IMG/VR virus record: IMGVR_UViG_3300027801_000026
Location: 1-57,037 of that record
DNA from: a virus
Direction: 5' to 3' (one strand)
DNA: 57,037 nucleotides
Positions 35,303 through 54,375 of this stretch are shown piece after piece (the stretch's first letter is position 1; every line of letters starts with the position of its first letter). A program made the position numbers and the translations under genes. The notes under the pieces were generated by a model. That model saw only the letters and a list, made by a program, of their open reading frames with translations, did not search any database and had not been told where the DNA came from.

Positions 35303-35305
35303 GTA

Positions 35306-35314
35306 TATAAGTAT
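35306..35314 (-). promoter_or_regulatory. Promoter-like box abutting the HNH start codon
   Basis: Coding strand ATACTTATA, one base from the consensus, ends 3 nt before the HNH ATG (35302). If it is a -10-type element, the transcript would begin at or inside the first codons and be leaderless. Confidence 0.35.
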
Positions 35315-35320
35315 AGAAAA

Positions 35321-35349
35321 AAGGGGTATTAACATAAAGTGTACCCCTT
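35321..35349 (-). terminator. Second intrinsic terminator after the capsid gene
   Basis: Coding-strand stem AAGGGGTA / TACCCCTT (8 pairs, 13-nt loop) followed by six T. Confidence 0.8.
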
Positions 35350-35461: not shown

Positions 35462-37060
35462 TTATAAGTTAGCTAAATCCTTTACATATACTTTTCCGTA
35501 AAATTCTGGTCTAACCATCTTCTTAGCATATCTCGTCATAACGCCACGTCTTGGTGTGAAGTTAGTTGGGTCATATACTAGAGGAGTCATGATTAAAGGT
35601 ACATATGGTGCGTAAACAGCTCCAGTTTCAAGGAAATTACTTCCTTTGAATCCTAACAAGATTTCGTTTGAAGTCATGTAAGGGTTTTTGTAAACTGTGT
35701 ATCTGTTTGCGATAGAACCAATAGTAGTTACACCGGCTGCGAAAGATGTAGCATCTTTATCAGCTGAAACTGTAAATCCTGGGATTGATTCTAAAATAGT
35801 ACATACATCTGGAGAAGCAACAACGAAGTTAGCTCCACCTCTAAGTGTCAATTGGTGAATCTTGTTTGAAACTTTATTAAGTTTCGCACCAAGAGTCTGG
35901 AACCAAGAGTTCTTAGTATAAGCAGCTGAATTAGTTCCAGCAACCCATGCAGTGTTAGCTGAATCATATTCTTCACCTAAAGTTACAGACCAGTATTCAG
36001 TTGTTAAAGCATTAGCTTTTAACATATCAAGGATTTCTAAGTCAATCTCTAAAGAGATATATTCAGATAACATTGAAGTTAATTCTGCTTCTGCATCAAT
36101 TGAATGGTATGCGTTTAAATCCTGTGCTAACTCTGGAGTCCATACAGCCTTTAGTTTTCTAGTCTTAGCAACAATTGCTTCAGACTTTAATTCTAAATCT
36201 ACTTCTGGAATTCCGATATCAGCTGGTGTTCCTGGAGTGTTATCTTCAAAATCACCTCTGTTAGCTTCTACTGGAGCTTCAGAATATTTAACTGTTAAAT
36301 CATCAGCGAATAATAATCCTGCTGTTTTCGCGAAGAAAACTGCGTTAGTACTAGATATTTTAGAGTGTGCTGGGTAAAATCCATCAGCAACTGAAAAATC
36401 AGATGCAGATATGTGGAATGAACGTACAGCATCTAAATCAGGTCTTGTTAAACCAGAATAAGCAAAAGATACTTTTGCTAATGTTCCAGCTGCTACTGAA
36501 GCTGATAATGAACTATCATAGTTCACATCTGCCCATGAAGCTGATGCTATTGTTAAGTCCGCGTTTGCGATATCCGTTGAACCGTCATTTACTGAGTATC
36601 CAAATCTACCTTCACCGTATAAACCGTTTATAGCTGAATCAGTAGAACCTACGTCCGTACCAGTACCACCGAAAAGTGATTTTCCGCTAAATCCAGGGTT
36701 ACCCGCTTGAGCTGTACCATATTTAAAATCTAGATAAAAGATTAGTCCAGATGGTAAGTTCATTGGTTGTACACTAACGAATTCTTTAGAAGCAATCTCG
36801 CCAAAGATTCTTCTTACTAATGGAAGGGCAACGCCACTCCATTCTTCATTACCAGCAGAAGTACCTGTTGCGGTAGCTTCATCTAATAATTGTTTTGCTT
36901 GGTTCTCTAAAAGAACCGAAATTTGAGATTGCTCTCTGTCTGCTAAACCTTCAAGAAGTCCAGTTTGTTCCCATTTACCTTTAAGTTCTCTAGTCTCTGC
37001 TAGCATAACTTGCTGTGGGTTCTTTCCTTCCATTAATTTAGATAAATCAAAATTTGCCAT
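35462..37060 (-). CDS. 23: Major capsid protein (gp23-like)
   Basis: 532 aa, close to T4 gp23 (521). The N-terminal ~61 residues are a helical, charged delta-like region. The motif QLLDE-A (Glu61/Ala62) fits the T4 prohead protease rule, and the mature protein would start ATATGTSAGNEEWSG, close to where T4 gp23 is cut (after residue 65). Then ALPLVRRIFGEIASKEFVSVQPMN opens the HK97-fold part, and SIDAEAELTSMLSEYISLEID and the C-terminal RRGVMTRYAKKMVRPEFYGKV follow. It is preceded by scaffold (27 nt) and followed by two terminators, as expected for the most abundant virion protein. The first residues also contain KLME-G. Confidence 0.95.
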   Translation of the reverse strand: MANFDLSKLMEGKNPQQVMLAETRELKGKWEQTGLLEGLADREQSQISVLLENQAKQLLDEATATGTSAGNEEWSGVALPLVRRIFGEIASKEFVSVQPMNLPSGLIFYLDFKYGTAQAGNPGFSGKSLFGGTGTDVGSTDSAINGLYGEGRFGYSVNDGSTDIANADLTIASASWADVNYDSSLSASVAAGTLAKVSFAYSGLTRPDLDAVRSFHISASDFSVADGFYPAHSKISSTNAVFFAKTAGLLFADDLTVKYSEAPVEANRGDFEDNTPGTPADIGIPEVDLELKSEAIVAKTRKLKAVWTPELAQDLNAYHSIDAEAELTSMLSEYISLEIDLEILDMLKANALTTEYWSVTLGEEYDSANTAWVAGTNSAAYTKNSWFQTLGAKLNKVSNKIHQLTLRGGANFVVASPDVCTILESIPGFTVSADKDATSFAAGVTTIGSIANRYTVYKNPYMTSNEILLGFKGSNFLETGAVYAPYVPLIMTPLVYDPTNFTPRRGVMTRYAKKMVRPEFYGKVYVKDLANL

Positions 37061-37087: not shown

Positions 37088-38254
37088 TTATTTAATATTT
37101 GCTAGTTGTTTGAATCTATCAGCCATCGTGTTAGTTGATTCAGTAATTACTTCCTTAGAAGGAGCAGTACTTGCAACTGATTTAGATGCGAATGATTCAG
37201 TCAATTTCGCGGTTGGTTTTTGTTTTCTTGAAGTACCACCAATTTTTAGTGATTCAGCAAGAGTTGAAAATACTAATTTAACTTCTCTAACATTCTTAGT
37301 TCTGTCTAACGTTTCAACAACTTTCATTTTTTGGTCATTGCTTAAGTCATAAGAACGGAATAGTTTGTTAGTGTAAAGTAATTTAGCATTTAATAAATTT
37401 ACTTCGTTGATAGTTGATTTCAATTCCTTGATAGTACTTATTGCTTCTTCAAGCTCATTTTGTACTTCTTCAAGTTCATTAGTTTCTTCTACAACTTCCT
37501 CTTCAGATTCATCATCTTCTCCGTATCCCATTTCTTTAAGGATCTCGTCTAAGTTGATTTCTTCATCTAATTCTTCTTCAAAGTCTTCATCTTCTTCTTC
37601 AGAAACTTCTTCACCTTCAGATTCTTCATCATGATGTTCTTCTTCGATTTCTTCTGCAGGAACTTCTTCCTCTTCAGAAACTTCATCTTCGTGATGTTCT
37701 TCTTCGTGTGCTTCAACTTCGTCTGATGCGATATCGGATACTTCTTCAGATTCTTCATCATCAAGTTCTTCTTCAAGTTCTCTAATGATTGCCTCTAAAT
37801 CAAGTTCGTCTTCGTCTTCTTCAGATTCAACTTCTTCTTCTTCAGAAACTTCTTCTTCAGCTTCTTCAGCTGGAGCTTCAACTTCTTCTTCAGAAACTTC
37901 TTCTTCTTCTTCGGATTCATCTTCAGCTTCATCAGCTTCAATTTCTTCTTCTTCAGTTACAGTTTCTTCAGTTACTTCTTCACCTTCTTCAGATTCTTCT
38001 TCTTCAGTTACAGTTTCTTCAACTACATCTGATTCTTCTCCTTCTAATTCGTGTGTTTCTACTACTTCGTTTTCTTCAACTTCTTCTTTATCTTCATCCG
38101 CTTCTTCAATTTCTTGAGTTAGTTTCTGAGATAGAATAGATTGTAAACGAGGTGTGAACGCTTCTTCTAAAGCGATTTTAGCGTTTGCGATTGCAGTAGC
38201 CCTTACAGCTTTTGCATCAGCGATAGCTTCTTTTAACAAATTTGAGTTTGTCAT
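37088..38254 (-). CDS. 22: Prohead core scaffold (gp22-like) with long acidic region
   Basis: 388 aa, compared with 269 in T4. It starts MTNSNLLKEAIADAKAVRAT, where LLKE-A is a likely prohead protease site. Residues about 55-245 are dominated by Glu/Asp with few other residues (runs such as SEEEEVESEEDEDELDLE), an extreme acidic block. The C-terminal ~130 residues are the recognisable part (LNAKLLYTNKLFRSYDLSND, VREVKLVFSTLAESLKIGG), a pattern I know from gp22 of cyanophages. Scaffold proteins fill the prohead and are degraded by gp21. The acidic peptides left behind could neutralise packaging cations. It lies directly upstream of the capsid gene. Confidence 0.85.
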   Translation of the reverse strand: MTNSNLLKEAIADAKAVRATAIANAKIALEEAFTPRLQSILSQKLTQEIEEADEDKEEVEENEVVETHELEGEESDVVEETVTEEEESEEGEEVTEETVTEEEEIEADEAEDESEEEEEVSEEEVEAPAEEAEEEVSEEEEVESEEDEDELDLEAIIRELEEELDDEESEEVSDIASDEVEAHEEEHHEDEVSEEEEVPAEEIEEEHHDEESEGEEVSEEEDEDFEEELDEEINLDEILKEMGYGEDDESEEEVVEETNELEEVQNELEEAISTIKELKSTINEVNLLNAKLLYTNKLFRSYDLSNDQKMKVVETLDRTKNVREVKLVFSTLAESLKIGGTSRKQKPTAKLTESFASKSVASTAPSKEVITESTNTMADRFKQLANIK

Positions 38255-38775: not shown

Positions 38776-39111
38776 TTATGATATTTTTTTTACGATAAAA
38801 TCAATATCTAAAAGAATCCCATATCCAGCACCTTCGTAGTTATACATTGGTTTGAATTTTAATTTAGTTTTCTTTTCAGCGTATTTGGCCAATTGTTTAG
38901 TTATATCATCTTTTGATGTATTACCTAATTTTTCTATCTTATCCAACTCAACTGATTTTCTAGGGATGAATTGAATTATAGGCTGTCCGTTATGTGCTTT
39001 CCTACCACCGGTTACCAAGAAATCAGGAAATACCGATGGTAAATCGGATTTATTATCAGTAGATTGTAACACTACCTTTCCTTCATTAAGTATATCTGAA
39101 AGTTTTATCAT
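38776..39111 (-). CDS. Putative prohead internal protein with MIKL tag, 111 aa
   Basis: Starts MIKLSDILNEGKVVLQSTDN. The first ten residues match the tags of the 223-aa and 403-aa proteins and end in ILNE-G, a T4-type prohead protease site. The remainder is a small alpha/beta sequence (FPDFLVTGGRKAHNGQPIIQF, FKPMYNYEGAGYGILLDIDF). I do not recognise the domain. The ATG overlaps the previous stop (TAATG). The tag and location suggest packaging with the core. Function after cleavage is unknown. Confidence 0.7.
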   Translation of the reverse strand: MIKLSDILNEGKVVLQSTDNKSDLPSVFPDFLVTGGRKAHNGQPIIQFIPRKSVELDKIEKLGNTSKDDITKQLAKYAEKKTKLKFKPMYNYEGAGYGILLDIDFIVKKIS

Positions 39112-40862
39112 TATGATAATTGAAATAGTTTTTCTTCTGCAGCTGCATTGGTTCTGTAATCATAATGTTTTGAATTTACTCCAAAATCTTTTAGGGATTT
39201 TTCTAACCAAATTCTATATTTTATTTTACCATACTTTTTTTCTACTTTAGAAAGTATATCGTAAAATTTAGTTTCAGATTTACCAGATTTCTTTTTAAGT
39301 TGAGATATTTCTTTTTTATCTTCTTTAATTTCATTACGTCTCACTATCATTCCCGCACCACCATCCTTTTTAACGGATTTTAAAAACTTCTTTGCATCTG
39401 ATTCAGATTTATAAGAAGCAGTTGCTGGTTTTATACTACGGTTTGATACATCTTTTTTAACTTTAAACAATACATGAAATGGAGTTCCTTCTGTAATTGT
39501 AGATTCATCTAAATCTATCATTTTATCAAATTCAACAAATGATATAGCATCTTTGGGGTTTACTTTGAATTTCTTGGCGGCCTTTAATACAAGTTCTCTT
39601 GTGATTTTAGAGTTTGGTAATTTATCAATTAGTTTAGAAAAGTTACCATCTACCCATACCTTTGGATTCTTAGTAGTTTTTTCGTTAACTGATGATTCAT
39701 TAAATACAGTATAATTTTTGATACCTATCTTCTTTACAAGTTTATCAATTGCATGATAATCTCTATCAGGATGATTTCCATCTCCAAGTTCTATTTCAAC
39801 TTGACCTTTAGTTGGTCCGATTTTACTTACTTGTACTTTATATTTTTTATTTATCTTTTGGACTGCCTTTTTTAAAGCATCTACCTTATTAGAATTTGGT
39901 GGAGTTACCGATTCTCCAAATAATCCTACTAAATCTCCTTGGTATTTATTTCCTGGTCTACCAGAAAGTGCAGTTGCAAAATTCAATCTATCTTTTAACT
40001 TACCTTTTTTAAGAAATTTAAAAAGTTCCTTATCATTAAGGCTATAATCTTTTATAAATTTTTCTACTGCAGAACCACGAGTTCCTGTTAATCCAGCAAT
40101 ACCCATTGATAATTTACTAACTTCATTAATATTTTCTGCAAACTTAACCAAATCTCTAGCTCTTTTAACTAAAGTTTTAGAAGGGATACCATATGTATCA
40201 CTCATTACATCTTGTGTGAATTTGTTTGTTAGGAAACCTTGTAGTTCTTTTTTAGTAGCAACACCAACTCCGAATGAATCTTTTGCAACTTTATCTAATT
40301 CTTGAGCAGTTAACTTACCTTTAAAGTAATCTGTTAATGCATCTTTTTTAAAGTTGTATTTCTTTTCGTTTACTACTGATTCGAATGTTCTCTTCTTAGA
40401 TTTAGATACAATTTTTAAATCTTTTTCTTTTGCTAAGATGTATTTTTCAAATCTTCCATCTTTACCTAAGTTAACTTTGTATTCACCATTATCATATCTA
40501 ACTACATCACCAACAAACTTTTTCTTATATTTAGGGTCTATCCATTGAACTCTTGCATCGTAAAATTTTGGATTGATTTTTTCGTTTATTATAGATTCGT
40601 TTGGTGATGTTTGTACCGAACCGGTTGTTATAGTACCTGTTGATGTTCTATTACTAAATTTAACATGCTCTTCATCTAATACAGTTCCTTCGTATATAGA
40701 TTTAAGATATTTGATAAAATCAGTATCTTTACTCATACTCTTAAACTCTTTATCTGAAAAGACTTTCTTAACAAAGTCTCTAACATCTTTAGAATCTTGT
40801 CTTATTTGGTCTATTTGAGAAAACATACCTTCGTTCATAGTTGATTTGTTTTTATTATCCAT
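39111..40862 (-). CDS. Putative prohead internal protein with repeated cleavage-like motifs, 583 aa
   Basis: I choose the ATG at 40862 (MDNKNKSTMNEGMFSQIDQ), with AAAGGTGG upstream, over a GTG three codons earlier. It is Lys-rich and contains recurring (I/V/M)-x-E motifs: STMNE-G near residue 10, NESIINE-K, FESVVNE-K, NESSVNE-K and ESTITE-G. Between them are separate small domains, among them a YDNGEYKVNLGKDGRF strand module, a helical KDRLNFATALSGRPGNKYQG region and a C-terminal FGVNSKHYDYRTNAAAEEKL. Only E-G sites fit the strict T4 rule. It looks like a chain of modules joined by a repeated linker. No family recognised. The stop is coupled to the next gene. Confidence 0.7.
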   Translation of the reverse strand: MDNKNKSTMNEGMFSQIDQIRQDSKDVRDFVKKVFSDKEFKSMSKDTDFIKYLKSIYEGTVLDEEHVKFSNRTSTGTITTGSVQTSPNESIINEKINPKFYDARVQWIDPKYKKKFVGDVVRYDNGEYKVNLGKDGRFEKYILAKEKDLKIVSKSKKRTFESVVNEKKYNFKKDALTDYFKGKLTAQELDKVAKDSFGVGVATKKELQGFLTNKFTQDVMSDTYGIPSKTLVKRARDLVKFAENINEVSKLSMGIAGLTGTRGSAVEKFIKDYSLNDKELFKFLKKGKLKDRLNFATALSGRPGNKYQGDLVGLFGESVTPPNSNKVDALKKAVQKINKKYKVQVSKIGPTKGQVEIELGDGNHPDRDYHAIDKLVKKIGIKNYTVFNESSVNEKTTKNPKVWVDGNFSKLIDKLPNSKITRELVLKAAKKFKVNPKDAISFVEFDKMIDLDESTITEGTPFHVLFKVKKDVSNRSIKPATASYKSESDAKKFLKSVKKDGGAGMIVRRNEIKEDKKEISQLKKKSGKSETKFYDILSKVEKKYGKIKYRIWLEKSLKDFGVNSKHYDYRTNAAAEEKLFQLS

Positions 40863-41526
40863 TACAACCACCTTTAGTTATTCCACCACATCCACAACCA
40901 CAATCTGATTTAGATTCTTTTACTGATTCTTTAAGATTTAAACTTCTTTGAGCATTTACCAACCCATCGATGAATCCTTTTAACATTTTTTTAGTTCCTG
41001 CCTCATCTCTTGCTTTAATCGGTTTTTCTAAAACTTTTACATTATTTTTTATATATTTAACAATTGCATTATCAACTGCTCCCCATCTTATTTCTGCTTC
41101 GTTTACTGATTCATTAGTCATTCCCAAACGGTCTTTCATTTGGTCTTCGGTAATTTCACCCAACTTATAGTATCGAGAAAGAATGTGTCCCATATCTTCA
41201 TATAATCCAGCCATTCTTTGGTCTAATCCTTTTGCTTCAACAGCACATTTATCAAATTGCTTACCCAACTTATCCAATTCACTCATGTTTCTCTTAACAG
41301 TATGTTTATCGAACCAATCATCACCTTCATGTATTGCAAGTGTTCTTGCTGCTTCTGTGATACCACCAAGTGTTTCTGCGATTTCTTGAAGATCAGATTT
41401 TCTATCAAGTGATTCTTGATATTTGTTGTATGTAGAAACAATTTCTAAGAAGTGTTTTTTAACTTCTAAAGAAAGAGGTCTTTTTTCCTCACTTGCTTCT
41501 TTTAATAATTGAGTTAATTTAATCAT
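40855..41526 (-). CDS. Putative prohead internal protein with MIKL tag and Cys-rich tail
   Basis: 223 aa. The N-terminus MIKLTQLLKEASEEKRPLSL carries the shared tag with LLKE-A. Residues about 20-140 are helical (FLEIVSTYNKYQESLDRKSD, FDKCAVEAKGLDQRMAGLYED). NESVNE-A near residue 145 is a second site. The tail ends SDCGCGCGGITKGGCNG, four Cys among Gly, which could bind metal. It has a good Shine-Dalgarno AAGGAG 7 nt upstream. A candidate promoter box inside the preceding gene (41607-41615) lies 81 nt upstream. Its last codons overlap the next gene start. Function unknown. Confidence 0.7.
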   Translation of the reverse strand: MIKLTQLLKEASEEKRPLSLEVKKHFLEIVSTYNKYQESLDRKSDLQEIAETLGGITEAARTLAIHEGDDWFDKHTVKRNMSELDKLGKQFDKCAVEAKGLDQRMAGLYEDMGHILSRYYKLGEITEDQMKDRLGMTNESVNEAEIRWGAVDNAIVKYIKNNVKVLEKPIKARDEAGTKKMLKGFIDGLVNAQRSLNLKESVKESKSDCGCGCGGITKGGCNG

Positions 41527-41536
41527 GGGATTCTCC

Positions 41537-42748
41537 TTAAAATAATTTTTTTAATTTAGTGTCTTTATAAGTATCAGCGTAATACCACTTCTTATCTTTC
41601 ATATTATATAAATATACAAATTCAGCACCATTCTTACTATCAGCAGCTTTTAGATATGATTCAACATCTTTAGAATCACCTTTTTGTGGTTGTCCACTTT
41701 TATAGTATTCAATATCCTTATCATTAAAGATTCCTCTTGCTCCACCCATCTTGATTAGTTTAAGAACATCTTTATCATTTTTCATGTGATGTTTTAAACC
41801 TTTTTTCATATTTGATGGATAACCATCGTAGTGAACATATGCAGATATAATTTTACCGTTACTACCAATCACACCAACTTGAGAACGAGTTCCTTCGTTA
41901 ATTTGAATTGATTCAGGTATCATATCTGATATAGATGTTGTTGATTCATTCTTCTCATCGAAGATTGATTGTATTTTTGCTGCTAATTTATGTGAACCAT
42001 TCATTTTCAAATCAAATGCAATTGCATCTATTGATTCTTGACCATCCCAAGATGATTCTCCAGTTGCTGAATGAGCGATATCATCAGTACCCTCACTTGA
42101 ATCACCAAATGATGAACCCCATGCCGTATCTTTTTTCCATTCATCATATTCATCTGTGAACATTTCCGGTTTGTTTGGGTCATCTGAAGGATTCTTAGCA
42201 AGTTCAGGATTATCTTCTAAAACTGCAATAAGAGCTCTTGATTCAGAGTGAAAGTTTGCATCTGTTAAAGCTTCAACAGCTGCTTGAGACATTCTTTTTT
42301 CATATTCTTCTTTACCTAACTTACTTGGTGATACTCCTAAACTTTGTGCTTTTTTACGAACAACTTTGTTTACTTGAGGATTACCAGCTCTTGGTTTAGA
42401 TGGTTCTGATGTAGGTTCATCATTCTTCTTAGGTTCTTCTTTTTCCGGTTTATCAAAGATGTTCACTTTAGGAACATCTTTACCGGCAGAAGGTTCATCA
42501 CCTCCCTTCGCTGCTTTTTGCTTGTTATGAGTCCCTGCTTTTATTGCAGAATCTCGTGATTCTTTAGATTTGAAAACAGATACCACACCACTATCTTTAT
42601 TGATAGCAGTAAATGATTCAGCTTCTTGTAAAGCTTTTTTTGCTTGATAAGCAGTTCTTACACTATCTAATGTAGGTAGTGCATCACCAATTTGTCTATT
42701 TTCGAAACCTGGTGATGATTCATTTAGTAAATCTGTTAGTTTAATCAT
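41537..42748 (-). CDS. Putative prohead internal protein with MIKL tag, 403 aa
   Basis: A longer frame opens at 42808, but the ATG at 42748 (MIKLTDLLNESSPGFENRQ) follows AAAGGAAATAACAAA and clears the upstream gene, so I choose it. The tag ends LLNE-S. Then comes an INKDSGVVSVFKSKESRDSA module that I associate with marine T4-like phages. A Pro/Ser/Lys-rich linker (about residues 90-150) follows, then a helical region, SIQINE-G (a second site), and a C-terminal ~125-residue domain (YVHYDGYPSNMKKGLKHHM to YNMKDKKWYYADTY). That last domain looks folded but is not recognised. It lies 4 nt after the 67-aa gene. Confidence 0.7.
   Translation of the reverse strand: MIKLTDLLNESSPGFENRQIGDALPTLDSVRTAYQAKKALQEAESFTAINKDSGVVSVFKSKESRDSAIKAGTHNKQKAAKGGDEPSAGKDVPKVNIFDKPEKEEPKKNDEPTSEPSKPRAGNPQVNKVVRKKAQSLGVSPSKLGKEEYEKRMSQAAVEALTDANFHSESRALIAVLEDNPELAKNPSDDPNKPEMFTDEYDEWKKDTAWGSSFGDSSEGTDDIAHSATGESSWDGQESIDAIAFDLKMNGSHKLAAKIQSIFDEKNESTTSISDMIPESIQINEGTRSQVGVIGSNGKIISAYVHYDGYPSNMKKGLKHHMKNDKDVLKLIKMGGARGIFNDKDIEYYKSGQPQKGDSKDVESYLKAADSKNGAEFVYLYNMKDKKWYYADTYKDTKLKKLF
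41607..41615 (-). promoter_or_regulatory. Internal candidate promoter box for the 223-aa gene
   Basis: Exact ATATTTATA on the coding strand inside the 3' end of the 403-aa gene, 81 nt before the ATG at 41526. Confidence 0.35.
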
Positions 42749-42752
42749 TTTG

Positions 42753-42956
42753 TTATTTCCTTTTATTTTTTCCTTCAACGATAATTTTTTTACTTGTATA
42801 TCTATCAAGTTTGCCGTCTTTAGTAAGTTTTACTTCATAATTAGTTTTACGAATATCATTGTGGCCACCCTTATAAGGAGAGTCACCAATTGCCTTCTCA
42901 TGTTTACCTAATTCTATCTTATTATTTTTAAGATAATCTTGAATGCTAAATGCCAT
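42753..42956 (-). CDS. Small basic head-operon protein, 67 aa
   Basis: MAFSIQDYLKNNKIELGKHE then KAIGDSPYKGGHNDIRKTNY, with a strand-like YEVKLTKDGKLDRYTSKKI and a C-terminal VEGKNKRK. It is basic, with no membrane segment. IIVE-G near the C-terminus fits a prohead protease site, leaving a short basic peptide. It lies between protease and MIKL-tag genes (7 nt after the protease). Family not recognised. A core component is plausible. Confidence 0.6.
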   Translation of the reverse strand: MAFSIQDYLKNNKIELGKHEKAIGDSPYKGGHNDIRKTNYEVKLTKDGKLDRYTSKKIIVEGKNKRK

Positions 42957-42963: not shown

Positions 42964-43557
42964 TTAATTTAATTCTGTTATAATTTCTCTCATCAAATCT
43001 TGTGATTTACAATACTCATTACAAACCAAAGTTTGTTTTTGTAATTGTTTGGTCACAGATTCGTTCATTGGAGTCATAAATGCACCATGAGTTGATGGAT
43101 TAGAAACGAAATCCCAACCTATCAATTCAAAATCTTCACCTACTTTAACTTTTCCTTCTCCTATATTAACAACTGAACCCATTCCTCTTGAAGATATTCC
43201 AAGAAGGATTCCTGCCTTTAATAATTCTTTTAGTATATTTCCACTTGGAGTTGGTAATATCTCAACAGTACCTACTAAATCATCATTATCCCAATGAATC
43301 TCTCTTACGTTATGAGAAACATTCTTTAAATTGATTACCGAAGAATCTGGATGGTCTAATTCACCAAGAGCTCTTCTCTCTGTAATAAGTTGTTCGTATT
43401 TTTTGGCTTCTCTTTCTAAGATTTCTCTTGGATAGACTCTACCATTTTGATTTTCTGCACCTGCTCTTTGTAAAATACCTTTAACGATAGTTCTTCCGCT
43501 ATCATCTTCTTTTACTTTACCTTCGAACAGTCTTGTTTCTATTAATAAATTATTCAT
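42964..43557 (-). CDS. 21: Prohead core protease (gp21-like)
   Basis: 197 aa from the ATG at 43557, compared with 212 in T4. A TTG start at 43569 would only add MGSI and lacks support, whereas GGGGAG lies 5 nt before the ATG. The catalytic pattern of this serine protease family is present: GELDHP with His69 and GISSRGMGSV with Ser122/Ser123. IVKGILQRAGAENQNGRVYP and GWDFVSNPSTHGA are the other conserved blocks. The N-terminus MNNLLIETRLFEG contains RLFE-G, a likely autocleavage site. It matures the prohead by cutting core, scaffold and capsid. The ATG overlaps the stop of a 58-aa gene (TAATG). Confidence 0.9.
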   Translation of the reverse strand: MNNLLIETRLFEGKVKEDDSGRTIVKGILQRAGAENQNGRVYPREILEREAKKYEQLITERRALGELDHPDSSVINLKNVSHNVREIHWDNDDLVGTVEILPTPSGNILKELLKAGILLGISSRGMGSVVNIGEGKVKVGEDFELIGWDFVSNPSTHGAFMTPMNESVTKQLQKQTLVCNEYCKSQDLMREIITELN

Positions 43558-43733
43558 TATGCTCCCCAACTTTTACGTTTTTTAAACAAATCAAAAAAGA
43601 TTGCTGAAACTTCTGTACGAATCATTTTTCTGATTGTATCCTCATCGGATTCAGATAATTCTTCGCTGATGTTCCCTAACTTAACGTTATGGATTTCTTC
43701 ATCAATTATTTCTAACAATTCTCTTTTGGTCAT
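43557..43733 (-). CDS. Small protein upstream of protease, 58 aa
   Basis: A short gene from ATG 43733 to TAA 43557-43559, overlapping the protease ATG. The product starts MTKRELLEIIDEEIHNVKLG, is acidic in the first half and basic at the end (FFDLFKKRKSWGA), and is predicted all-helical. Translational coupling to the protease and tight spacing (10 nt after the previous stop) argue that it is real. Similar short helical proteins seem common beside gp21 in marine T4-like phages as I remember them. Function unknown. It might regulate or tether the protease. Confidence 0.7.
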   Translation of the reverse strand: MTKRELLEIIDEEIHNVKLGNISEELSESDEDTIRKMIRTEVSAIFFDLFKKRKSWGA

Positions 43734-45988: not shown

Positions 45989-47722
45989 TTAATTTTCCGT
46001 ATCTTCGAGGATATTGTCCTCATTTAACATGTCTGTGTCTTCGTGTAAATACTTTCGTTTTGATGAAATTCCATTGATATATTTCAATGCCGTGTCTTCG
46101 GAAGTTCGAGTACGTTTCGATGTTCTTTCTTTATCACCAAGTGGATCTCTACCTAATGGGTGCTTATCTTTCCCATATGTACCACCTTCTCTTGGTCTTC
46201 CACCTTTATTCTTAATCTCTTGTTTTATTTTTTCAATTGATTCTTCAATATCATCTGGTTCTTCATCTTCGGTTGCAGGGTCATTACCCTCATCTTCAAT
46301 AGAACGGAAACGGAATCGATCTTTCAAATCATCTAACATTCTAACTCTCTGTACATCTTGTTCTCCACCACTTAGTTTAAATATGTTTTCATATACCCAA
46401 TCTTTGGATAACATATTCAATCCTTGTATATCTTGAGCCAATCTAACTTTCTCACTCCACAAGTTTACTTTTTCTTGTTCGTATATTGTAGATGGATTAA
46501 CTAATGATAAACTAAAGTTAGTCATTTCTGAATCTTGTATTCCTTGTGCATATAAATGAACGATTGCAATTTTAGATAATTCTGAAACTACTGTTCTCTG
46601 TATTCTTTCAATTGTTCTTGCGAATCTTACATCCTCTGCTGCTAATGTTGCTTTACCATTTACATTTTCTTCATATCCCAAATATGCTCTTGGAATTTTT
46701 AATGCTGCAAACATTTTGTTTTTTAAGTAATCAATATCTTCAATAGATGCATATTCCATTCCTGCAAGATTATCAATACTTGTACCACTATCACCACCAC
46801 GAACAGGAAGATAGAAATCTTCTGTTAGGTTTTGCATATTGTATTTTAAGTTATAGTCACCGGTATTCTTATCAACAAAAGGAACTTTCTTCATCTTGTT
46901 AATAATTCTTTGCATATAGTTATCAACTTCCGTTGGAGGAATGTTACCGATATCAATTTTGAAAACTCTCTTTTCAGGTGCTCTCATAATTCTATGGATT
47001 AACATTGCATCTTCCATAAGAGATAATTGTTTCCACAATCTTCTCCCATTTTCAATCATTGATTTTCCATATGGTAACCAGTTTGTATCTGCTAATAATC
47101 TAAAATGTGCTATTTCAAAGTTTTCGTATTCTTCTTTACCATTCGGGTCTTCGGTAATTTTAAACTTAACTGAATTTGGATTAGTAGGGTCTGTTCTTTC
47201 TAATCGTTCTGTGTTGTAAACAGAATGTGGAGTAACATTTACAATACCCTTTCCATCTGCCACTTCTAAACCTAAGAAGAAATCACCATACTTACACATA
47301 TTTCTTACCCATGGCCATAAGTTGAATTCAACATTAAGGATATCATAGAATAAGTTATCAAGAACATCTTTTACTTTTTCGTTATCCGAGTGAACCATTA
47401 AAGTATCACCGAATTCGTTTTTTAATGTAGATTCATCTGCATATATATCAAGTGCCGAAGCTAATATAGGATCATTATCCATTGCATCGTAATCTCTAAA
47501 AACTTCTCTACGAACTTGTTGGTATGCCATTGATTGGGCACCACCTGCTTGCTCGAAGAACGATTTTTGTATCTTCGTATATCTATCTCTTAGAGAGGAT
47601 AGATTTGTTTGTTGTCTTTCATCACCGTCAAAAACTTTTCTTTTACCATCTTTGTCAATCGTTACGATTGCCGTAGTACGGAAGAGTTTTGTTAGACGTC
47701 CAAAAAATGAAGTATCTGCCAT
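45989..47722 (-). CDS. 20: Portal protein (gp20-like)
   Basis: 577 aa, compared with 524 in T4. The recognisable blocks are YDAMDNDPILASALDIYADE near residue 70, FLGLEVADGKGI with YNTERLERTDPTN, the central APEKRVFKIDIGNIPPTEVD, and the stem/crown region with GKATLAAEDVRFARTIERIQ and FSLSLVNPSTIYEQEKVNLW. Portals form the dodecameric ring through which DNA enters and leaves, and nucleate prohead assembly. The C-terminal ~90 residues are acidic then basic (EDEEPDDIEESIEKIKQEI, GGRPREGGTYGKDKHPLGRD), a low-complexity extension relative to T4. The gene follows terminase, as in T4 order. Confidence 0.9.
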   Translation of the reverse strand: MADTSFFGRLTKLFRTTAIVTIDKDGKRKVFDGDERQQTNLSSLRDRYTKIQKSFFEQAGGAQSMAYQQVRREVFRDYDAMDNDPILASALDIYADESTLKNEFGDTLMVHSDNEKVKDVLDNLFYDILNVEFNLWPWVRNMCKYGDFFLGLEVADGKGIVNVTPHSVYNTERLERTDPTNPNSVKFKITEDPNGKEEYENFEIAHFRLLADTNWLPYGKSMIENGRRLWKQLSLMEDAMLIHRIMRAPEKRVFKIDIGNIPPTEVDNYMQRIINKMKKVPFVDKNTGDYNLKYNMQNLTEDFYLPVRGGDSGTSIDNLAGMEYASIEDIDYLKNKMFAALKIPRAYLGYEENVNGKATLAAEDVRFARTIERIQRTVVSELSKIAIVHLYAQGIQDSEMTNFSLSLVNPSTIYEQEKVNLWSEKVRLAQDIQGLNMLSKDWVYENIFKLSGGEQDVQRVRMLDDLKDRFRFRSIEDEGNDPATEDEEPDDIEESIEKIKQEIKNKGGRPREGGTYGKDKHPLGRDPLGDKERTSKRTRTSEDTALKYINGISSKRKYLHEDTDMLNEDNILEDTEN

Positions 47723-47845: not shown

Positions 47846-49450
47846 TTAATCCTTTTTCTTAGTATCTAGTAACCAACTTAGGTCTTCTTCGTGTTCACCT
47901 ATTCTCATTTTCCATGGATTTTCATCCATAGAAGTGTTACCACCAAACCCACCTTCGAATCCCGCAGTTGATTGTCCTATTCCACCCAAAGTTTGTTTAG
48001 TTAAATCAATTCCTTCTTGTCTTAATCTTAATGCAGTATCACGTACCCACAATCCGATTGATAATGCCATCGTTAAATCATCATTATATCCTCTCATTGC
48101 TTCTGCCCTATTACCATGCCATATAAATGTAAACAATTCATCTATCATTCGTGTGGAACGTATAGTTACCGATTTTTCTCTGATATATTGTTCTAATTTA
48201 GATATAATAAGTGGTCTTGTTTTGGAAGTTGTTGAAAAACCAGGGACCATACCTCGTTCTTCTGCTCTGTATTTATTATGTAATTGATTTTCCACATCTA
48301 CATACTTTAAATCCTTACTCATATAGAATAAGTTCTGATATCCTCTATCAATTACTTGTTGAATTACTGCCCAACCAATATTAGCGTTTTCAATTACCAA
48401 TAATGCTTGATTATATTCAGTTGCAAGTGCTACCAAGAAATTTCCGAAATCTTTTGTATCTAACTTCCCTTTATATTCAGCAACTTGGGTTGAGGCCTCA
48501 ATATCAATCACGTGACAGGTGGAAAAATCACCCCCATCACCACGAGCAACATCAGCAACAACCATATATCCTCTATTGTAATTTGGATATTCCCATTTCC
48601 AAAGATTACCATCAAAACCAGTCTTTTCAATTGGTTCTTGACAATAAGTTTCTTTATAAAACATTAAAAGTTGTGGGTCTATTACAGTATCACCAGAAGA
48701 TACGAAATCACAATCACATTCTTGAGCCGCTCCTTTTGGTCCTAATAAAACTTCTTGTTCATCTCTCCATGCTTGATCTCTTTCAGGATGAATCGACCAA
48801 TGTAATCTGATATTATTAAATGTATTTGTTCCTTCTTCAGAACCTACCCATATTTTGTGGAAAAAGTTCCCAACACCATTTGGAGTAGAAAGAATAATTG
48901 CATTACCACCCGTTGATAAGGTAGATTGAGCCGAAACCCATATATCCTCAATTTTATCAATGAATCCCGCTTCGTCAAAGACCAAAAGTGATAGTGCTTC
49001 AGAACGCCCTGCATCCGATGCGGCTGAAGTTGCTTTAATCTGAGAACCATTTGAATATCTTAAAGATAATTTGTTATCTTCTACTGTGTTTTGTTTTAAC
49101 CACGAGGGTAAATATTGATTCATCACTCTAACCTTCGTTACAAGGTTCTTTGCAACTTCTTGCTTGGTTGCAATTACTAATACGTTAAAATCTTGGTTAA
49201 ATAACATCTTCCAAAGTGAAAATCCAGCAGTTAAGGTTGAAATACCTGTTTGTCGAGATTTTAGGATAATATTATATCTGTGTTTTGTAAATTCTTCAAC
49301 TGTTCTTTCTTGGAACTGATATAAATGGAATGGAATTTTACCACGTACAGGATGCTGTATCATACAATACTTCTTCATGAAATATGCCGGATCTGATGCA
49401 CATTTCTGATATTCAAGTTTTATTATATCCTTGAGTGATTGTTTGGCCAT
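47846..49450 (-). CDS. 17: Terminase large subunit (gp17-like)
   Basis: 534 aa, compared with 610 in T4. The ATPase domain has Walker A SRQTGIST at residues 65-72 and Walker B LLVFDE at about 155-160, with catalytic Glu160. The RNase-H-like nuclease domain has VVADVARGDGGDFS (Asp300), VIENANIG (Glu354) and a late GYNDDLTMALSIG Asp pair. It therefore contains both the packaging motor and the headful-cutting nuclease. It shows no intein or frameshift. It starts 3 nt after the spanin-like gene stop. No recognisable small terminase (gp16) is adjacent, though the 218-aa zinc-motif protein upstream is a possible candidate by position only. Confidence 0.95.
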   Translation of the reverse strand: MAKQSLKDIIKLEYQKCASDPAYFMKKYCMIQHPVRGKIPFHLYQFQERTVEEFTKHRYNIILKSRQTGISTLTAGFSLWKMLFNQDFNVLVIATKQEVAKNLVTKVRVMNQYLPSWLKQNTVEDNKLSLRYSNGSQIKATSAASDAGRSEALSLLVFDEAGFIDKIEDIWVSAQSTLSTGGNAIILSTPNGVGNFFHKIWVGSEEGTNTFNNIRLHWSIHPERDQAWRDEQEVLLGPKGAAQECDCDFVSSGDTVIDPQLLMFYKETYCQEPIEKTGFDGNLWKWEYPNYNRGYMVVADVARGDGGDFSTCHVIDIEASTQVAEYKGKLDTKDFGNFLVALATEYNQALLVIENANIGWAVIQQVIDRGYQNLFYMSKDLKYVDVENQLHNKYRAEERGMVPGFSTTSKTRPLIISKLEQYIREKSVTIRSTRMIDELFTFIWHGNRAEAMRGYNDDLTMALSIGLWVRDTALRLRQEGIDLTKQTLGGIGQSTAGFEGGFGGNTSMDENPWKMRIGEHEEDLSWLLDTKKKD

Positions 49451-50863: not shown

Positions 50864-53800
50864 TTAGAAGAAAATACCTAAGATTTGATTTACACTGGCG
50901 AATGTTCCAGTTAACTTAAAGGTGTTTCCATTATATAAAAATACAATACCTTCATTTGGTACAATTTTCTTAGAACCACCGATTGATTGTAATCTCCCAA
51001 GTTCTAATTTAAGTTTTTCAATCTTTTTTGGGTCACCTGATTTCTTAACATCTTTAATTGTCTTATCAATTCGTTTTTTCATATCACGAACTGCCGCTGT
51101 GGGATTTACAGTTAATGCAGATGAAGTAAATTCTAATACTTCTGCTCCTAATCCTAAGAATATCTGTTCGAACTTCATTACGTTTGTTTTAGATATTTTA
51201 ACTTGGTCTTGTTTATCTATTTTCTTAGACCATTCTAATGTTTTCTCATCAGTAATGTTTCTCTTGTCTAATCTAAATCCCTTATCGTAGAATGCCCATC
51301 TTTTAACTAATCCCATTTTAGTTTTGTTATCTAATGAAGAAGGAGAGTTTTTATCAACCCATTGAGACCACCATGCTTGATGATAATCTGCAACTCCATC
51401 AGTATCCTTTAAACTGAATTCTTTTTGTAGTTTAGATATCTGTGAATTATATTGAGAACGTTTTTTAGCTAAGTTCTGTGATTTAGGTAACTTCATAACA
51501 GGTGGGCCCTTTATAGTATAGTTATCTTGAACATCTTTATTGATTTGTGCAATCATACCTGCTAATACTCTTGCAGCATCTACGTTTTCACCAATTGCAA
51601 TACCATCATCATTGTACTCCATAGTTCCATGGAATACCAATAATGCTTGTCCATAAGGAATAACATTAACTGATGTTGGATATATTACTTCAAGGTTCAT
51701 AAAACACGCTCCTTGTTTGAATACCTTATCTCTTTGTTTTTCAGATAATGATTTAATAGAGTCTGAAAGGTCTTTCATTGCGAAGTTATAAGCTTTTTCT
51801 AATTCACCCCTACCAGCAAACTTGGTTGCAATTCCATTGATATCCAATGCATTTTCACCTTTGTTTTTTAAATGTCCTTTATTACGAGCGGCAACCAATC
51901 TCCCATCTCTCCATGAAATTGCCAATGCTTGACCATCTGTTTTTTCTCTTGCAAATTCCAATGTACCCTCTAATGCACGATTTACTATATCTTTAAGTTG
52001 TCCAAATGTTAAATTGATATCTGTATCAAATGGATGAGACATATGGCCATACGCACCACCTTCCATTAGAAGATTAGATTCGTTTATGTTTTCTTTTATT
52101 AAACTTTCGTTTTTTCCTTGGAATTTTTCACTCAATCTAACCATAGATTCTTTACTTCTAAAATCTCGGTTTGAACCTTTGTTATTTTTAAACCCAAATG
52201 ATTTATAAAACTGAACTAATCTTGTCTTAGAACCACCGAAATCCGAGGAAGGAGTGGTGAATAGAGTTTTATTATTAGAATCTGCGTATTTAATCAAATC
52301 TTTCATTACCTTAGAACCAACACCATTACCACGTTGTTCTTTTGGAACTACAATTCTATGTAATTCTAATCTATCAGGATATTCGTAAATATCTAAGTCA
52401 ACTTTGTATTTATTTGATAAATTACTTTCAATGTTTTCTTTTATTAAACTTTCGTTTTTTCCTTGGAATTTTTCAACTTCCTTTGCTCGTAATACTGGTA
52501 AGAATCTGAATTTAGCTCTTTTTATTATTCTTCCTTTTTTTCTTACTACGTTCTTATGAACTACTTGAGTTTGTGCAATAGATAAATCAGCTTTCTTAAT
52601 ACCAGGATATAATTCTTCTGAGAATTCGGCATAAACTTGTCTATATGCCATCTTGTAAGCAATCTTCTTAAGTTTAGAAAGAGGTTTTCTACGTTTCATT
52701 GTTCTTGCTCTTCTTCTAGCAATTTCCTTACCCTTTCCTGCCATTGCTGCTTTTCTTCTTAATCTATCAGCAGGTCTCATCTTACCTCGTTCATCGAGTT
52801 CTTCATTTAAACCCATCTTTTCTTGCCATGAATCAAATGCATCGAAATCATATTCTTGTTTTTGAGAATCCCATCCACATGAATGACATAAATACTTTTC
52901 ACTATCATCAGCTTCTATTTCCCATTGATGATTACATTTTTCACATTTAACTTCCGTACCAGCTAATTCTACAATTTGTTCAAATACATTTGGAGCTTTT
53001 TTATGATATCTAAAAGTTACTACCTTCTTACCATTAATTGTTGGTAAACCATGTTCATCTTCACCAATAGTTTTAACAACTACCTTTTTGTTTTTGAATT
53101 TACCCATTAAAAGAGTATCTCCAATTTCTACTGGTAATTTAATTATTTCTTGTAATGAATTTTCAAACTCTTCTTGAGATTTTTTATCACCTTGTTGAGA
53201 ATCTAATGATTGTTCTCTTTCGTCTTTATTAGTATCCAATCCACCTACTACTGAATATCCTACTAAGGAAGCTTTTCGTGTTACGTGTTTGAACCACTTA
53301 GAATATGCATCACTTGAATAGATATCAACTTGGTTAGTTGCAGTTTGTGCACCAAGTACACCAGCTGGGAATGGAGTTACTGCTTTAACAGGTCCGTTTG
53401 GATAAGTTGGGTGTTCATAATAATCTTCCAATTCCCTAGTAGTTATCATGTTTACTATTTCGTATCCAATTTTTGCTGCTCTTTTTGCATTGATACGAGC
53501 AAATACTTCATAGTTTGGAAAAAATATATTTGGTCCATCATCTGATTGTCCTATTCCTGATTTTGATGCTTCATTTATTAACCATTCTTCTATTCGTTCT
53601 TTTGGAATAAAAATACCTTCGTTTAATTTATCAGTAATTAACTTAAAGATGGTTTTATTAAATTTAGTAAATGCAGTATCTTTAAAGAATTTCTGTTTTT
53701 GGTCCTCCGAACCATTAGTTAGTCCATGTCGTACTTGAGTACCACTTACACCACCACCACTTATAGGTGCAGCATAAACATATCCTCTATCTCTATATCC

Positions 53801-54214
53801 TTCAGTTGGTTCACCTTTATATGGTTGGAAGTATTTCCCACCTAAACGTGCTTTATCCTTTTCACCAACTACGGTTATAAATGCAGTTGTTTCTTCTTCA
53901 AACTTTTTAAGTATTTCTGTTGGTTTGTATGGATTCTTAACTAAATGTATTTTGGAACTTGGAATTCCAAACATGGTTGTCATTATCTTTACCTTTTCTT
54001 TGAAGTTAAAAGGTGATTTTAGATTATCGGTTTTATTAGAAGTTCCTATGAATACATTATCCTTACCGAACTTCTTGACAAGATGTTGGTACGTACCATA
54101 GTGTCCTTTATGGAAAGGCTGAAACCTACCCACGTAGATAACTACTGTTTTATTAATAGGATTTCCATCCTCAAGTAGTATTTGTTCTACTAAATAATTT
54201 GAAAGTTCGCTCAT
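50864..54214 (-). CDS. Multi-domain nucleotidyltransferase/zinc-ribbon/GNAT/ligase-like protein
   Basis: 1116 aa. Residues 22-195 are an NMNAT/cytidylyltransferase-like Rossmann domain with GRFQPFHKGHYG (HxGH at 35-38) and SGTQVR at 157-162. LNE-G at 197-200 fits a prohead protease site. Residues 365-402 are a short GKFKNKKVVVKTIG module. A zinc ribbon uses Cys424, 427, 443 and 446. Residues 478-575 are very basic and helical. Residues 597-690 are a compact GNAT acetyltransferase (LHRIVVPKEQRGNGVGSKVM, LVQFYKSFGF), flanked by a repeated EKFQGKNESLIKENI. LLME-G at 716-719 precedes a C-terminal ~400 residues resembling the ATP-dependent ligase fold: EKTDGQ (Lys758), FMNLEVIYP and EGIVF. Motif V is weak. 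The N-terminus MSELSNYLVEQILLEDG could be a targeting peptide. Enzymatic roles are inferred. Confidence 0.8.
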   Translation of the reverse strand: MSELSNYLVEQILLEDGNPINKTVVIYVGRFQPFHKGHYGTYQHLVKKFGKDNVFIGTSNKTDNLKSPFNFKEKVKIMTTMFGIPSSKIHLVKNPYKPTEILKKFEEETTAFITVVGEKDKARLGGKYFQPYKGEPTEGYRDRGYVYAAPISGGGVSGTQVRHGLTNGSEDQKQKFFKDTAFTKFNKTIFKLITDKLNEGIFIPKERIEEWLINEASKSGIGQSDDGPNIFFPNYEVFARINAKRAAKIGYEIVNMITTRELEDYYEHPTYPNGPVKAVTPFPAGVLGAQTATNQVDIYSSDAYSKWFKHVTRKASLVGYSVVGGLDTNKDEREQSLDSQQGDKKSQEEFENSLQEIIKLPVEIGDTLLMGKFKNKKVVVKTIGEDEHGLPTINGKKVVTFRYHKKAPNVFEQIVELAGTEVKCEKCNHQWEIEADDSEKYLCHSCGWDSQKQEYDFDAFDSWQEKMGLNEELDERGKMRPADRLRRKAAMAGKGKEIARRRARTMKRRKPLSKLKKIAYKMAYRQVYAEFSEELYPGIKKADLSIAQTQVVHKNVVRKKGRIIKRAKFRFLPVLRAKEVEKFQGKNESLIKENIESNLSNKYKVDLDIYEYPDRLELHRIVVPKEQRGNGVGSKVMKDLIKYADSNNKTLFTTPSSDFGGSKTRLVQFYKSFGFKNNKGSNRDFRSKESMVRLSEKFQGKNESLIKENINESNLLMEGGAYGHMSHPFDTDINLTFGQLKDIVNRALEGTLEFAREKTDGQALAISWRDGRLVAARNKGHLKNKGENALDINGIATKFAGRGELEKAYNFAMKDLSDSIKSLSEKQRDKVFKQGACFMNLEVIYPTSVNVIPYGQALLVFHGTMEYNDDGIAIGENVDAARVLAGMIAQINKDVQDNYTIKGPPVMKLPKSQNLAKKRSQYNSQISKLQKEFSLKDTDGVADYHQAWWSQWVDKNSPSSLDNKTKMGLVKRWAFYDKGFRLDKRNITDEKTLEWSKKIDKQDQVKISKTNVMKFEQIFLGLGAEVLEFTSSALTVNPTAAVRDMKKRIDKTIKDVKKSGDPKKIEKLKLELGRLQSIGGSKKIVPNEGIVFLYNGNTFKLTGTFASVNQILGIFF
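52086..52130 (-). repeat. 45-bp direct repeat, copy downstream of GNAT module
   Basis: Perfect copy of 52431-52475, offset exactly 345 bp (115 codons), in frame. It encodes EKFQGKNESLIKENI starting at residue 696. Confidence 0.9.
52431..52475 (-). repeat. 45-bp direct repeat, copy upstream of GNAT module
   Basis: Perfect copy of 52086-52130, encoding EKFQGKNESLIKENI from residue 581. The flanking bases diverge at once on both sides. Confidence 0.9.
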
Positions 54215-54258: not shown

Positions 54259-54375
54259 TTAGTGATTTTTGTAGATAAACGGATCTCTCTTACGGAGTTC
54301 TTCCAATTTCTTCTTGTAAAGTTTGTTTCTCTTACGATTTTTAAAGTAAGTAATAATTTTTTTGATTAGGTTCAT
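54259..54375 (-). CDS. Small basic protein, 38 aa
   Basis: From ATG 54375 to TAA 54259-54261. The product MNLIKKIITYFKNRKRNKLY then KKKLEELRKRDPFIYKNH is strongly basic and helical. It overlaps the end of the glycosyltransferase-like gene by 35 nt in another frame. The ending KKKLEELRKRDPFIY resembles short proteins I remember from marine T4-like phages, which is the main reason to accept so short a gene. Function unknown. Possibly nucleic-acid or membrane binding. Confidence 0.55.
   Translation of the reverse strand: MNLIKKIITYFKNRKRNKLYKKKLEELRKRDPFIYKNH

What the first reader, a model, noticed from the sequence alone, without database searches (positions are those of the whole stretch)
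50864..54214. Composite NMNAT-like, zinc-ribbon, GNAT and ligase-like protein beside terminase
One 1116-aa chain joins an adenylyl/cytidylyltransferase-like domain (HxGH at 35-38, SGTQVR at 157-162), a four-Cys ribbon, a basic region, an acetyltransferase and a C-terminal segment with KxDG, LE and EGIV motifs like ATP-dependent RNA/DNA ligases. LNE-G (197-200) and LLME-G (716-719) fit prohead protease sites at domain boundaries. Cutting there would release an N-terminal NTase, a middle part with ribbon and GNAT, and a ~398-aa ligase-like part. T4 Alt is a known precedent for a packaged, ejected NAD-using enzyme. A link to NAD metabolism or RNA end modification here is inference.
Basis: partly seen in the sequence, partly recalled or inferred. 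Interest (0 to 1): 0.78.

Follow-up and report, generated by a model that had tools for sequence, protein, structure and literature searches.

The report
Phage head-cargo polyprotein with swappable enzymes
A marine T4-like phage encodes one long protein that looks built to be loaded into the virus head, cut at its seams by the head protease and delivered as separate enzymes (an NAD-making enzyme, an RNA-ligase-like enzyme, an acetyltransferase); hundreds of relatives swap other enzymes, mostly tRNA-related, in and out of the same frame.

Summary
In detail: 50864-54214(-) is one 1116-aa ORF with every motif at the stated residues. The N-terminal domain is NMNAT-like (profile against the PDB: 10 hits, all NMNAT). 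The C-terminal 398 aa belong to an uncatalogued family (no Pfam, NCBIfam or named PHROG hit; hundreds of IMG/VR loci). It keeps an RNA-ligase motif set, and the top five PDB fold matches are all T4 RNA ligases, but none is statistically significant. The cleavage idea is strengthened. The window has a gp21-type prohead protease. Nine of 11 head-region genes, but 2 of 26 others, carry an early (L/I)xE|G/A/S/N-type site. Six of seven such sites in the protein lie in linkers. Across relatives the site before the ligase-like domain survives in 101 of 105, while the middle is swapped freely: CCA-adding enzyme, HD hydrolase, P-loop kinase, GNAT, others. The GNAT sits between perfect 45-nt direct repeats; relative L049 shows the site without it. 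A virion-detected cyanophage NMNAT (S-SCSM1 ORF91) is homologous to this domain and starts with a T4-like leader. Best reading: a capsid-targeted cargo polyprotein, cut by the head protease and ejected, probably for RNA/tRNA repair. Cleavage, packaging of this protein, and all activities are untested.

The parts
50864..54214 (-). Whole polyprotein ORF, 1116 aa
54170..54214 (-). N-terminal leader MSELSNYLVEQILLE|D (residues 1-15), capsid-targeting-type propeptide
   Evidence: 57/57 complete nonredundant proteins have [LIVMF]xE in the first 18 aa; T4 CTS precedent PMC9026906
53618..54169 (-). NMNAT/NadM-like nucleotidyltransferase (residues 16-199), ending LNE|G
   Evidence: Pfam CTP_transf_like; PDB profile search, 10 hits all NMNAT, best E 3e-7
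52436..53569 (-). Middle piece 216-593 between INE|A and IKE|N: unknown DDGPN domain, RFKNKK beta module, four-Cys ribbon, basic helical region
   Evidence: AF2 model poor except the basic helices
52850..52972 (-). Four-Cys ribbon (residues about 415-455)
   Evidence: Pfam HypA E 4e-4, below cut-off; Cys conserved
52460..52807 (-). Basic Arg/Lys-rich helical region (residues about 470-585)
52091..52435 (-). GNAT cassette, residues 594-708 (115 aa), bounded by IKE|N on both sides
   Evidence: Pfam GNAT; RimI-like
52431..52475 (-). First copy of the 45-nt direct repeat EKFQGKNESLIKENI (before the GNAT)
   Evidence: only perfect repeat of 21 nt or more found in the nonredundant set
52086..52130 (-). 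Second, identical copy of the 45-nt direct repeat (after the GNAT)
50867..52060 (-). RNA-ligase-like C-terminal domain, residues 719-1116, with about 200-aa helical insertion before motif IV
42964..43569 (-). Head maturation (prohead) protease, gp21 type; own leader MNNLLIETRLFE|G
   Evidence: PHROG 207 E 8e-51
35462..37060 (-). Major capsid protein with leader sites LME|G, LLE|G, LLE|N, LDE|A
   Evidence: PHROG 138
37088..38254 (-). Scaffold-like acidic protein, leader MTNSNLLKE|A
38776..39111 (-). Head-region ORF with leader MIKLSDILNE|G
40855..41526 (-). Head-region ORF with leader MIKLTQLLKE|A
41537..42808 (-). Head-region ORF with leader MIKLTDLLNE|S
45989..47722 (-). Portal protein
   Evidence: PHROG 213
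47846..49450 (-). Terminase large subunit
   Evidence: PHROG 2

Best explanation
The gene encodes a head-cargo polyprotein of a T4-like marine phage. A short N-terminal leader, of the kind that carries T4 internal proteins into the prohead core, would load the whole chain. The phage's gp21-type head protease, which by its sites also trims the capsid protein and scaffold, then cuts after (L/I)xE at the seams. This frees an NMNAT-like enzyme, a ribbon/basic piece, a GNAT and a 398-aa RNA-ligase-like enzyme, which are ejected with the DNA and act at once in the host. The two ends are the fixed core; the middle is a cassette site into which lineages insert other enzymes between protease-site linkers. 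The most likely job is repair or protection of host and phage RNA (tRNA above all) and its cofactor supply early in infection. SHOWN here by sequence: domain content, site placement, conservation, modular exchange, protease in the same cluster. INFERRED: packaging of this protein, cleavage, ejection, ligase activity, RNA-repair role.
For: gp21-type protease in the window and in all 11 other family records tested. Early (L/I)xE|G/A/S/N-type site in 9 of 11 head-region ORFs against 2 of 26 others, Fisher P 2e-5. Sites upstream of the C-terminal domain 607 observed against 289 shuffled, but 63 against 144 inside it; 32% of module boundaries have a site within 12 aa against 13% of random positions. 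Site kept before the C-terminal domain in 101/105, also on rumen-associated contigs at 25% identity. The C-terminal domain also occurs free-standing with its own leader: L051 MIRLGKLLNEVLLKE|GGAYGH, L032 MKFLKSYEEFLNE|NLILE|GG, the form expected if each part was once separately targeted. S-SCSM1 ORF91 (virion protein by MS, PMC9602691) is homologous to this NMNAT (E 4e-9) and begins MKSFLQFLKE|A. Other cargos point to tRNA: CCA-adding enzyme (E 3e-38), HD nearest to the HD of tRNA nucleotidyltransferases (E 0.002), P-loop kinase nearest to Ser-tRNA(Sec) kinase (E 8e-5). Catalytic Lys motif invariant, and interrupted by a split intein in L026.
Against: No proteomic or N-terminal data exist for this protein. 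The motif is short, and with [LIVMF] the number of sites in this one protein is not above chance. IGE|N (876/877) lies inside the ligase-like domain and would have to be protected by folding. Leader P1' here is Asp, not A/G/S/N. Ligase assignment is not statistically significant by sequence (hhalign P 0.04-0.1) or fold (best E 0.35). HD occurs only with CCA in related phages, so that pairing is not independent. The window's own protein has no CCA, HD or kinase cargo. Sequences are related, so site counts are not independent events.
Confidence: 0.6

Rival explanations
1. Packaged, but only the leader is trimmed: it works in the host as one multi-domain protein, like the unprocessed N4 virion RNA polymerase or a polyvalent protein. 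The internal (L/I)xE sites are just acidic linker residues.
For: Linkers are often acidic, and leader-only processing is typical of T4 IPs (PMC9026906). N4 vRNAP is packaged unprocessed (PMC5512222).
Against: Sites are depleted inside the C-terminal domain and enriched at module edges. The site before it is kept in 101/105 with many different upstream modules.
Confidence: 0.2
2. Not packaged: a cytoplasmic late multi-enzyme whose gene only happens to lie beside the terminase.
For: Packaging was not shown here; P-HM2_162, a possible cyanophage counterpart of the C-terminal part, has no obvious leader.
Against: Leader with [LIVMF]xE in 57/57 and enriched over neighbouring ORFs (39/53 against 84/491 with the strict motif). 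Head-cluster synteny in Mel-JY01 and the jumbo contigs. Homologous NMNAT found in a virion (PMC9602691); NMNAT-like proteins reported from several cyanophage virions (PMC10665884).
Confidence: 0.12
3. The payload is about NAD, not RNA repair: the injected NMNAT rebuilds NAD+ against NAD-depleting defences, and the C-terminal nucleotidyltransferase fold modifies a protein or small molecule (or caps RNA) rather than ligating.
For: NMNAT is present in 55/59 complete proteins, more constant than any RNA-repair cargo. Phages rebuild NAD+ by other routes (NARP1, PMC12774641 abstract). Motif V here is K-L-T-G rather than the K-x-K of T4 Rnl1, so full ligase chemistry is not assured.
Against: Most identifiable swapped enzymes are tRNA/RNA enzymes; top fold hits are RNA ligases.
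Confidence: 0.3
4. The C-terminal domain is a DNA ligase that seals nicks in the packaged or entering genome.
For: The KxDG/EG motif set is shared by DNA and RNA ligases (general knowledge).
Against: The five top PDB fold hits are all T4 RNA ligases; motif III N(L/F)E..P.....Y matches T4 Rnl1 in register and motif IV-V spacing matches by eye.
Confidence: 0.08

Closest known systems
T4 internal head proteins (IPI-III, Alt) and their capsid-targeting sequence
   Same: Short N-terminal leader ending in (L/I)xE, gp21-type protease in the head cluster, enzyme cargo (PMC9026906)
   Different: T4 packs each cargo as a separate protein with its own leader; here several enzymes share one leader with cut-type sites between them
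Phage polyvalent proteins (Iyer et al. 2017, PMC5512222)
   Same: Several effector domains in one chain expected to enter the host; GNAT and ParB-like modules shared in kind
   Different: Those are proposed to be processed by an embedded peptidase; no peptidase domain was found in the members scanned, the phage head protease is the candidate. NMNAT + ligase-like + CCA/HD sets are not described in the passages I read
Virion-associated NMNAT-like proteins of T4-like cyanophages (S-SCSM1, S-CREM2, S-CBWM1, S-SZBM1)
   Same: Homologous NMNAT domain (S-SCSM1 ORF91, E 4e-9) with LKE|A leader; detected in virions (PMC9602691, PMC10665884)
   Different: S-SCSM1 ORF91 is a 409-aa protein without ligase-like domain or cassettes; the other three were not examined by sequence
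T4 RNA ligase 1 (Rnl1) and ligase 2
   Same: KxDG, N(L/F)E..P.....Y and EG.V.....G..(F)K(L/I) motifs in the same order; top PDB fold hits
   Different: About 200-aa helical insertion before motif IV; T replaces the second motif-V Lys; no significant sequence score
Archaeal/NadM NMN adenylyltransferase
   Same: GRFQPFHxGH and SGTxVR motifs; all PDB profile hits are NMNAT
   Different: Fused in a phage head-cargo chain; activity untested

Membership tests
T4-type capsid-targeted, gp21-processed cargo | gp21-type prohead protease encoded in the same head cluster | tested here: met
   PHROG 207 E 8e-51; in 11/11 other family records
T4-type capsid-targeted, gp21-processed cargo | Short N-terminal leader ending (L/I)xE | tested here: met
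   MSELSNYLVEQILLE|D; 57/57 have [LIVMF]xE in the first 18 aa. P1' Asp is not the usual A/G/S/N
T4-type capsid-targeted, gp21-processed cargo | Present in virions and cleaved there | not testable with these tools
   Only a homologous NMNAT of S-SCSM1 is reported in virions (PMC9602691)
Polyvalent proteins | Several effector domains in one chain in a late/packaging context | tested here: met
Polyvalent proteins | Embedded peptidase that releases the domains (proposed in PMC5512222 for many members) | tested here: not met
   No peptidase domain in the members scanned with Pfam
NMNAT (NadM-like) | GxFxPxHxGH and SxTxxR motifs and closest relation to NMNAT | tested here: met
   Key residues invariant or nearly so in 32 relatives, though one clade has PFGPHH for PFHKGH; 10/10 PDB hits NMNAT
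NMNAT (NadM-like) | NMN + ATP to NAD activity | not testable with these tools
T4 Rnl1-type RNA ligase | Nucleophile Lys in KxDG (T4 K99) | tested here: met
   K41 of the domain invariant in 47 and in relatives at 25% identity
T4 Rnl1-type RNA ligase | Motif III Glu (E159), motif IV Glu (E227), motif V first Lys (K240) | tested here: met
   E125, E371 and K383 invariant; E159 register from hhalign, motifs IV-V matched by eye
T4 Rnl1-type RNA ligase | Motif V second Lys (K242) | tested here: not met
   Thr at that place (T385), invariant
T4 Rnl1-type RNA ligase | Significant sequence or fold similarity to known ligases | tested here: inconclusive
   Top five of 350,542 PDB chains are T4 Rnl1/Rnl2 but E 0.35-1.3; hhalign P 0.04-0.1

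The most novel reading that the evidence does not exclude
A large, undescribed group of mostly marine T4-like and jumbo phages carries a polyprotein 'magazine': one targeting leader, a fixed NMNAT and RNA-ligase-like enzyme, and a cassette region where enzymes are swapped between head-protease sites, so that a ready-made tRNA-repair and counter-defence kit is loaded as one chain, cut inside the prohead and injected in equal amounts.
Probability: 0.45. Interest if true: 0.88.

Novelty: new variant of a known kind. Interest (0 to 1): 0.76.

Why it matters
If true, phages do with the head protease what RNA viruses do with polyprotein proteases: equal loading of many enzymes through one targeting signal. 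It would put RNA repair at the moment of DNA entry rather than after early gene expression, help explain why NMNAT-like proteins keep turning up in cyanophage virions, and give a readable catalogue of injected counter-defence enzymes: everything between two (L/I)xE| sites in this frame is a candidate. It also defines a ligase-like family with no Pfam, NCBIfam or named PHROG entry.

Tried and rejected
Sequence search of the C-terminal profile against the PDB, Pfam and PHROGs: only chance-level hits. hhalign against T4 Rnl1 and Rnl2: motifs in register but not significant; reversed and unrelated profiles score lower, though not by much. hhalign and HMM between this domain and the KWDGAPA...EG(Y/F)VAI proteins of cyanophages (P-HM2_162, Melnitz ORF16): no significant link, so I do not claim they are the same family, although both are paired with an NMNAT (P-HM2_162/163, S-PM2 p141-p142). 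Basic region against Melnitz ORF17: no support. AF2 of 216-593: pLDDT 50, not used. Repeats as a general mechanism of cassette exchange: only this protein among the nonredundant set holds a perfect repeat of 21 nt or more, so the mechanism is suggested by one recent event only. tblastn for homologues in 50,697 phage records: the C-terminal domain only in Mel-JY01 and two uncultured huge-phage genomes. Literature searches for a described equivalent found none in the library held, which lacks most subscription papers. An earlier run of N-terminal leader counts (53/60) included fragments and mis-starts; one search replaces it.
Full report
OBSERVATION. The ORF 50864-54214(-) is intact and 1116 aa long. 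Pfam finds a cytidylyltransferase-like domain (26-108, E 1.7e-6) and a GNAT (615-676, E 6e-6), both at or above their cut-offs, and a weak ribbon match (417-449); nothing reaches a cut-off in the last 400 residues. The quoted motifs are at the quoted residues. The protein lies upstream of the terminase in a head cluster with terminase, portal, gp21-type protease and capsid protein.

SURROUNDINGS. The record is a 57-kb fragment. Some close relatives sit on contigs of 270-289 kb, with the protease about 8 kb away in the same order, so this is probably a piece of a jumbo T4-like phage. In the window, nine of eleven ORFs between the portal and the capsid gene begin with a leader containing (L/I/M/F)xE followed by G, A, S or N (for example MIKLSDILNE|G, MIKLTQLLKE|A, MIKLTDLLNE|S, protease MNNLLIETRLFE|G, capsid MANFDLSKLME|G); only 2 of 26 other ORFs do. 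T4's own gp67, gp68, gp21, gp22, gp23 and gp24 show the same pattern and gp18-gp20 do not, though gp17 has a chance hit. The T4 rule, cleavage after L/I-x-E and a 10-residue capsid-targeting sequence on internal proteins, is from PMC9026906.

RELATIVES. A scan of IMG/VR with the whole protein gave 28 loci, with the C-terminal alignment 580 confirmed matches (80 kept), and with the Mel-JY01 homologue 304 (80 kept); the sets may overlap. I read 188 of them. The ends are conserved and the middle is not. Complete nonredundant proteins run from 414 to 1999 aa. Of 59, 55 carry the NMNAT-like domain; 13 a P-loop kinase (Pfam AAA_33/Zeta_toxin, nearest PDB entry L-seryl-tRNA(Sec) kinase, E 8e-5); 8 a CCA-adding enzyme (E 3e-38); 6 an HD hydrolase, always with CCA, nearest to the HD part of tRNA nucleotidyltransferase (E 0.002); 2 a GNAT; others a ParB-like, DUF5661 or uncharacterised module. 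Modules change order: the RFKNKK module follows the leader directly in one clade and lies mid-chain in the other.

SEAMS. In 106 nonredundant proteins, [LIVMF]xE[GASN] occurs 607 times upstream of the C-terminal domain (289 expected on shuffling) and 63 times inside it (144 expected). It lies within 12 residues of 32% of module boundaries and 13% of random positions. These counts are not independent, because the sequences are related. The site directly before the C-terminal domain is kept in 101 of 105; one lineage has LLLM|GG instead. It is present in homologues only 25% identical on rumen-associated contigs. In the window's protein six of seven sites fall in linkers. The predicted pieces are leader 1-15, NMNAT 16-199, spacer 200-215, ribbon/basic 216-593, GNAT 594-708, two short linker pieces, and ligase-like 719-1116.

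LEADERS AND FREE-STANDING FORMS. All 57 complete proteins examined have [LIVMF]xE in the first 18 residues; the next residue is most often D or A. Quite different first domains (NMNAT, kinase, RFKNKK) share the leader type. Several phages carry the C-terminal domain alone, behind its own leader: L051 MIRLGKLLNEVLLKE|GGAYGHMNH, L032 MKFLKSYEEFLNE|NLILE|GGSYGH, L396 ...YIHE|ALQPILE|GGAGGH. In some fusions that leader-like peptide remains inside the chain (L029, L056: EEMIRLKKLLNEVLLTE|GGAYGH and similar). This suggests that separately targeted cargos were fused.

A RECENT INSERTION. The GNAT is flanked by a perfect in-frame 45-nt repeat, 345 nt apart, encoding EKFQGKNESLIKENI. No other member of the nonredundant set has a perfect repeat of 21 nt or more, and L049 has one linker of this kind (KFSGQTNEQLIKENINETKLLQE|GG) and no GNAT. 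L026 has the same GNAT family at another place, again bounded by KE|N and LSE|G. Similar GNAT sequences occur in DarB-like proteins of other phages.

THE C-TERMINAL DOMAIN. No Pfam or NCBIfam family matches and no named PHROG beyond chance. E40, K41, D43, G44, R60, N61, E125, E371, G372 and K383 (domain numbering) are invariant in 47 relatives. hhalign places K41 on T4 Rnl1 K99 and NLEVIYPTSVNVIPY on NFEFVAPTNRIVLAY; EGIVFLYNGNTFKLTG matches EGYVAVMKDGSHFKIKS by eye; but the second motif-V Lys (K242) is Thr, and scores are not significant. AlphaFold (47 sequences, pLDDT 82, but under 50 at the KTDG loop) gives a small beta core with a roughly 200-aa helical insertion. Of 350,542 PDB chains the five best matches are T4 RNA ligase 1 and 2, E 0.35-1.3; in the viral library, after its own family and a few unnamed proteins, many of the weaker hits are RNA ligases. 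The ligase idea was stated before this test, which gives the ranking some weight; it is not proof. In L026 a split intein (Pfam intein matches E 3e-6 and 4e-4, below the curated cut-off) with an ORF between the halves interrupts exactly K|TDG; inteins favour active-site codons (general knowledge).

VIRION EVIDENCE FROM ELSEWHERE. S-SCSM1 ORF91 (NMNAT) was detected in virions (PMC9602691), and NMNAT-like proteins are reported from virions of S-CREM2, S-CBWM1 and S-SZBM1 (PMC10665884; the authors note that carry-over was not excluded). ORF91 is homologous to this domain (E 4e-9) and begins MKSFLQFLKE|A. That links homologous domain, leader and presence in virions, in another phage.

MECHANISM. 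Most likely: leader-directed loading, cutting in the prohead, ejection, and early action on RNA. Confidence about 0.75 for packaging, 0.65 for internal cutting, 0.5 for RNA/tRNA repair as the main job. The NMNAT may feed NAD to repair or to counter NAD depletion; the ribbon and basic part may bind nucleic acid; the GNAT is RimI-like (E 1.6e-4, below cut-off) and could acetylate a host protein. These last points are inference.

VERDICT. The wider finding, a swappable, probably head-protease-cut cargo polyprotein in an uncatalogued phage family, is a new variant of two known kinds: T4 capsid-targeted cargo and polyvalent proteins.

Noticed in passing
L026:1-4294: Polyprotein gene broken by what looks like a split intein at K|TDG of the ligase-like domain, with a separate ORF (DUF7487, probably homing endonuclease) between the two halves: a 'fractured gene' arrangement.
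   Followed up: partly
window 38443-38748: Ribosomal protein S21 gene inside the head cluster, between scaffold and leader-bearing ORFs.
   Followed up: no
window 34883-35335: HNH endonuclease ORF next to the capsid gene.
   Followed up: no
L225:4781-6549, L228:3995-5774, L229:10950-14544: Cyanophage and Melnitz proteins with KWDGAPA...EG(Y/F)VAI motifs lie beside or are fused to an NMNAT; may be a second, distant ligase-like partner (no significant link to the window's domain).
   Followed up: partly
L395:4224-6173, L396:4893-6203: Homologues at 25% identity on 400-kb contigs binned as rumen Firmicutes; each bin also holds a gp21-type protease, so these contigs may be misbinned huge phages.
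   Followed up: partly
L227:2358-7836: S-SCSM1 ORFs 89, 90, 92 and 93 next to the NMNAT are also annotated virion proteins of unknown function; 89 starts MDSKTFNSLSE|A.
   Followed up: no
window 54341-57028: Upstream of the polyprotein: sugar epimerase, transketolase-like and a 492-aa unknown ORF, probably surface-sugar genes.
   Followed up: no
window 49453-50803: Two ORFs of unknown family (236 and 218 aa, the first with a membrane segment) between the polyprotein and the terminase.
   Followed up: no
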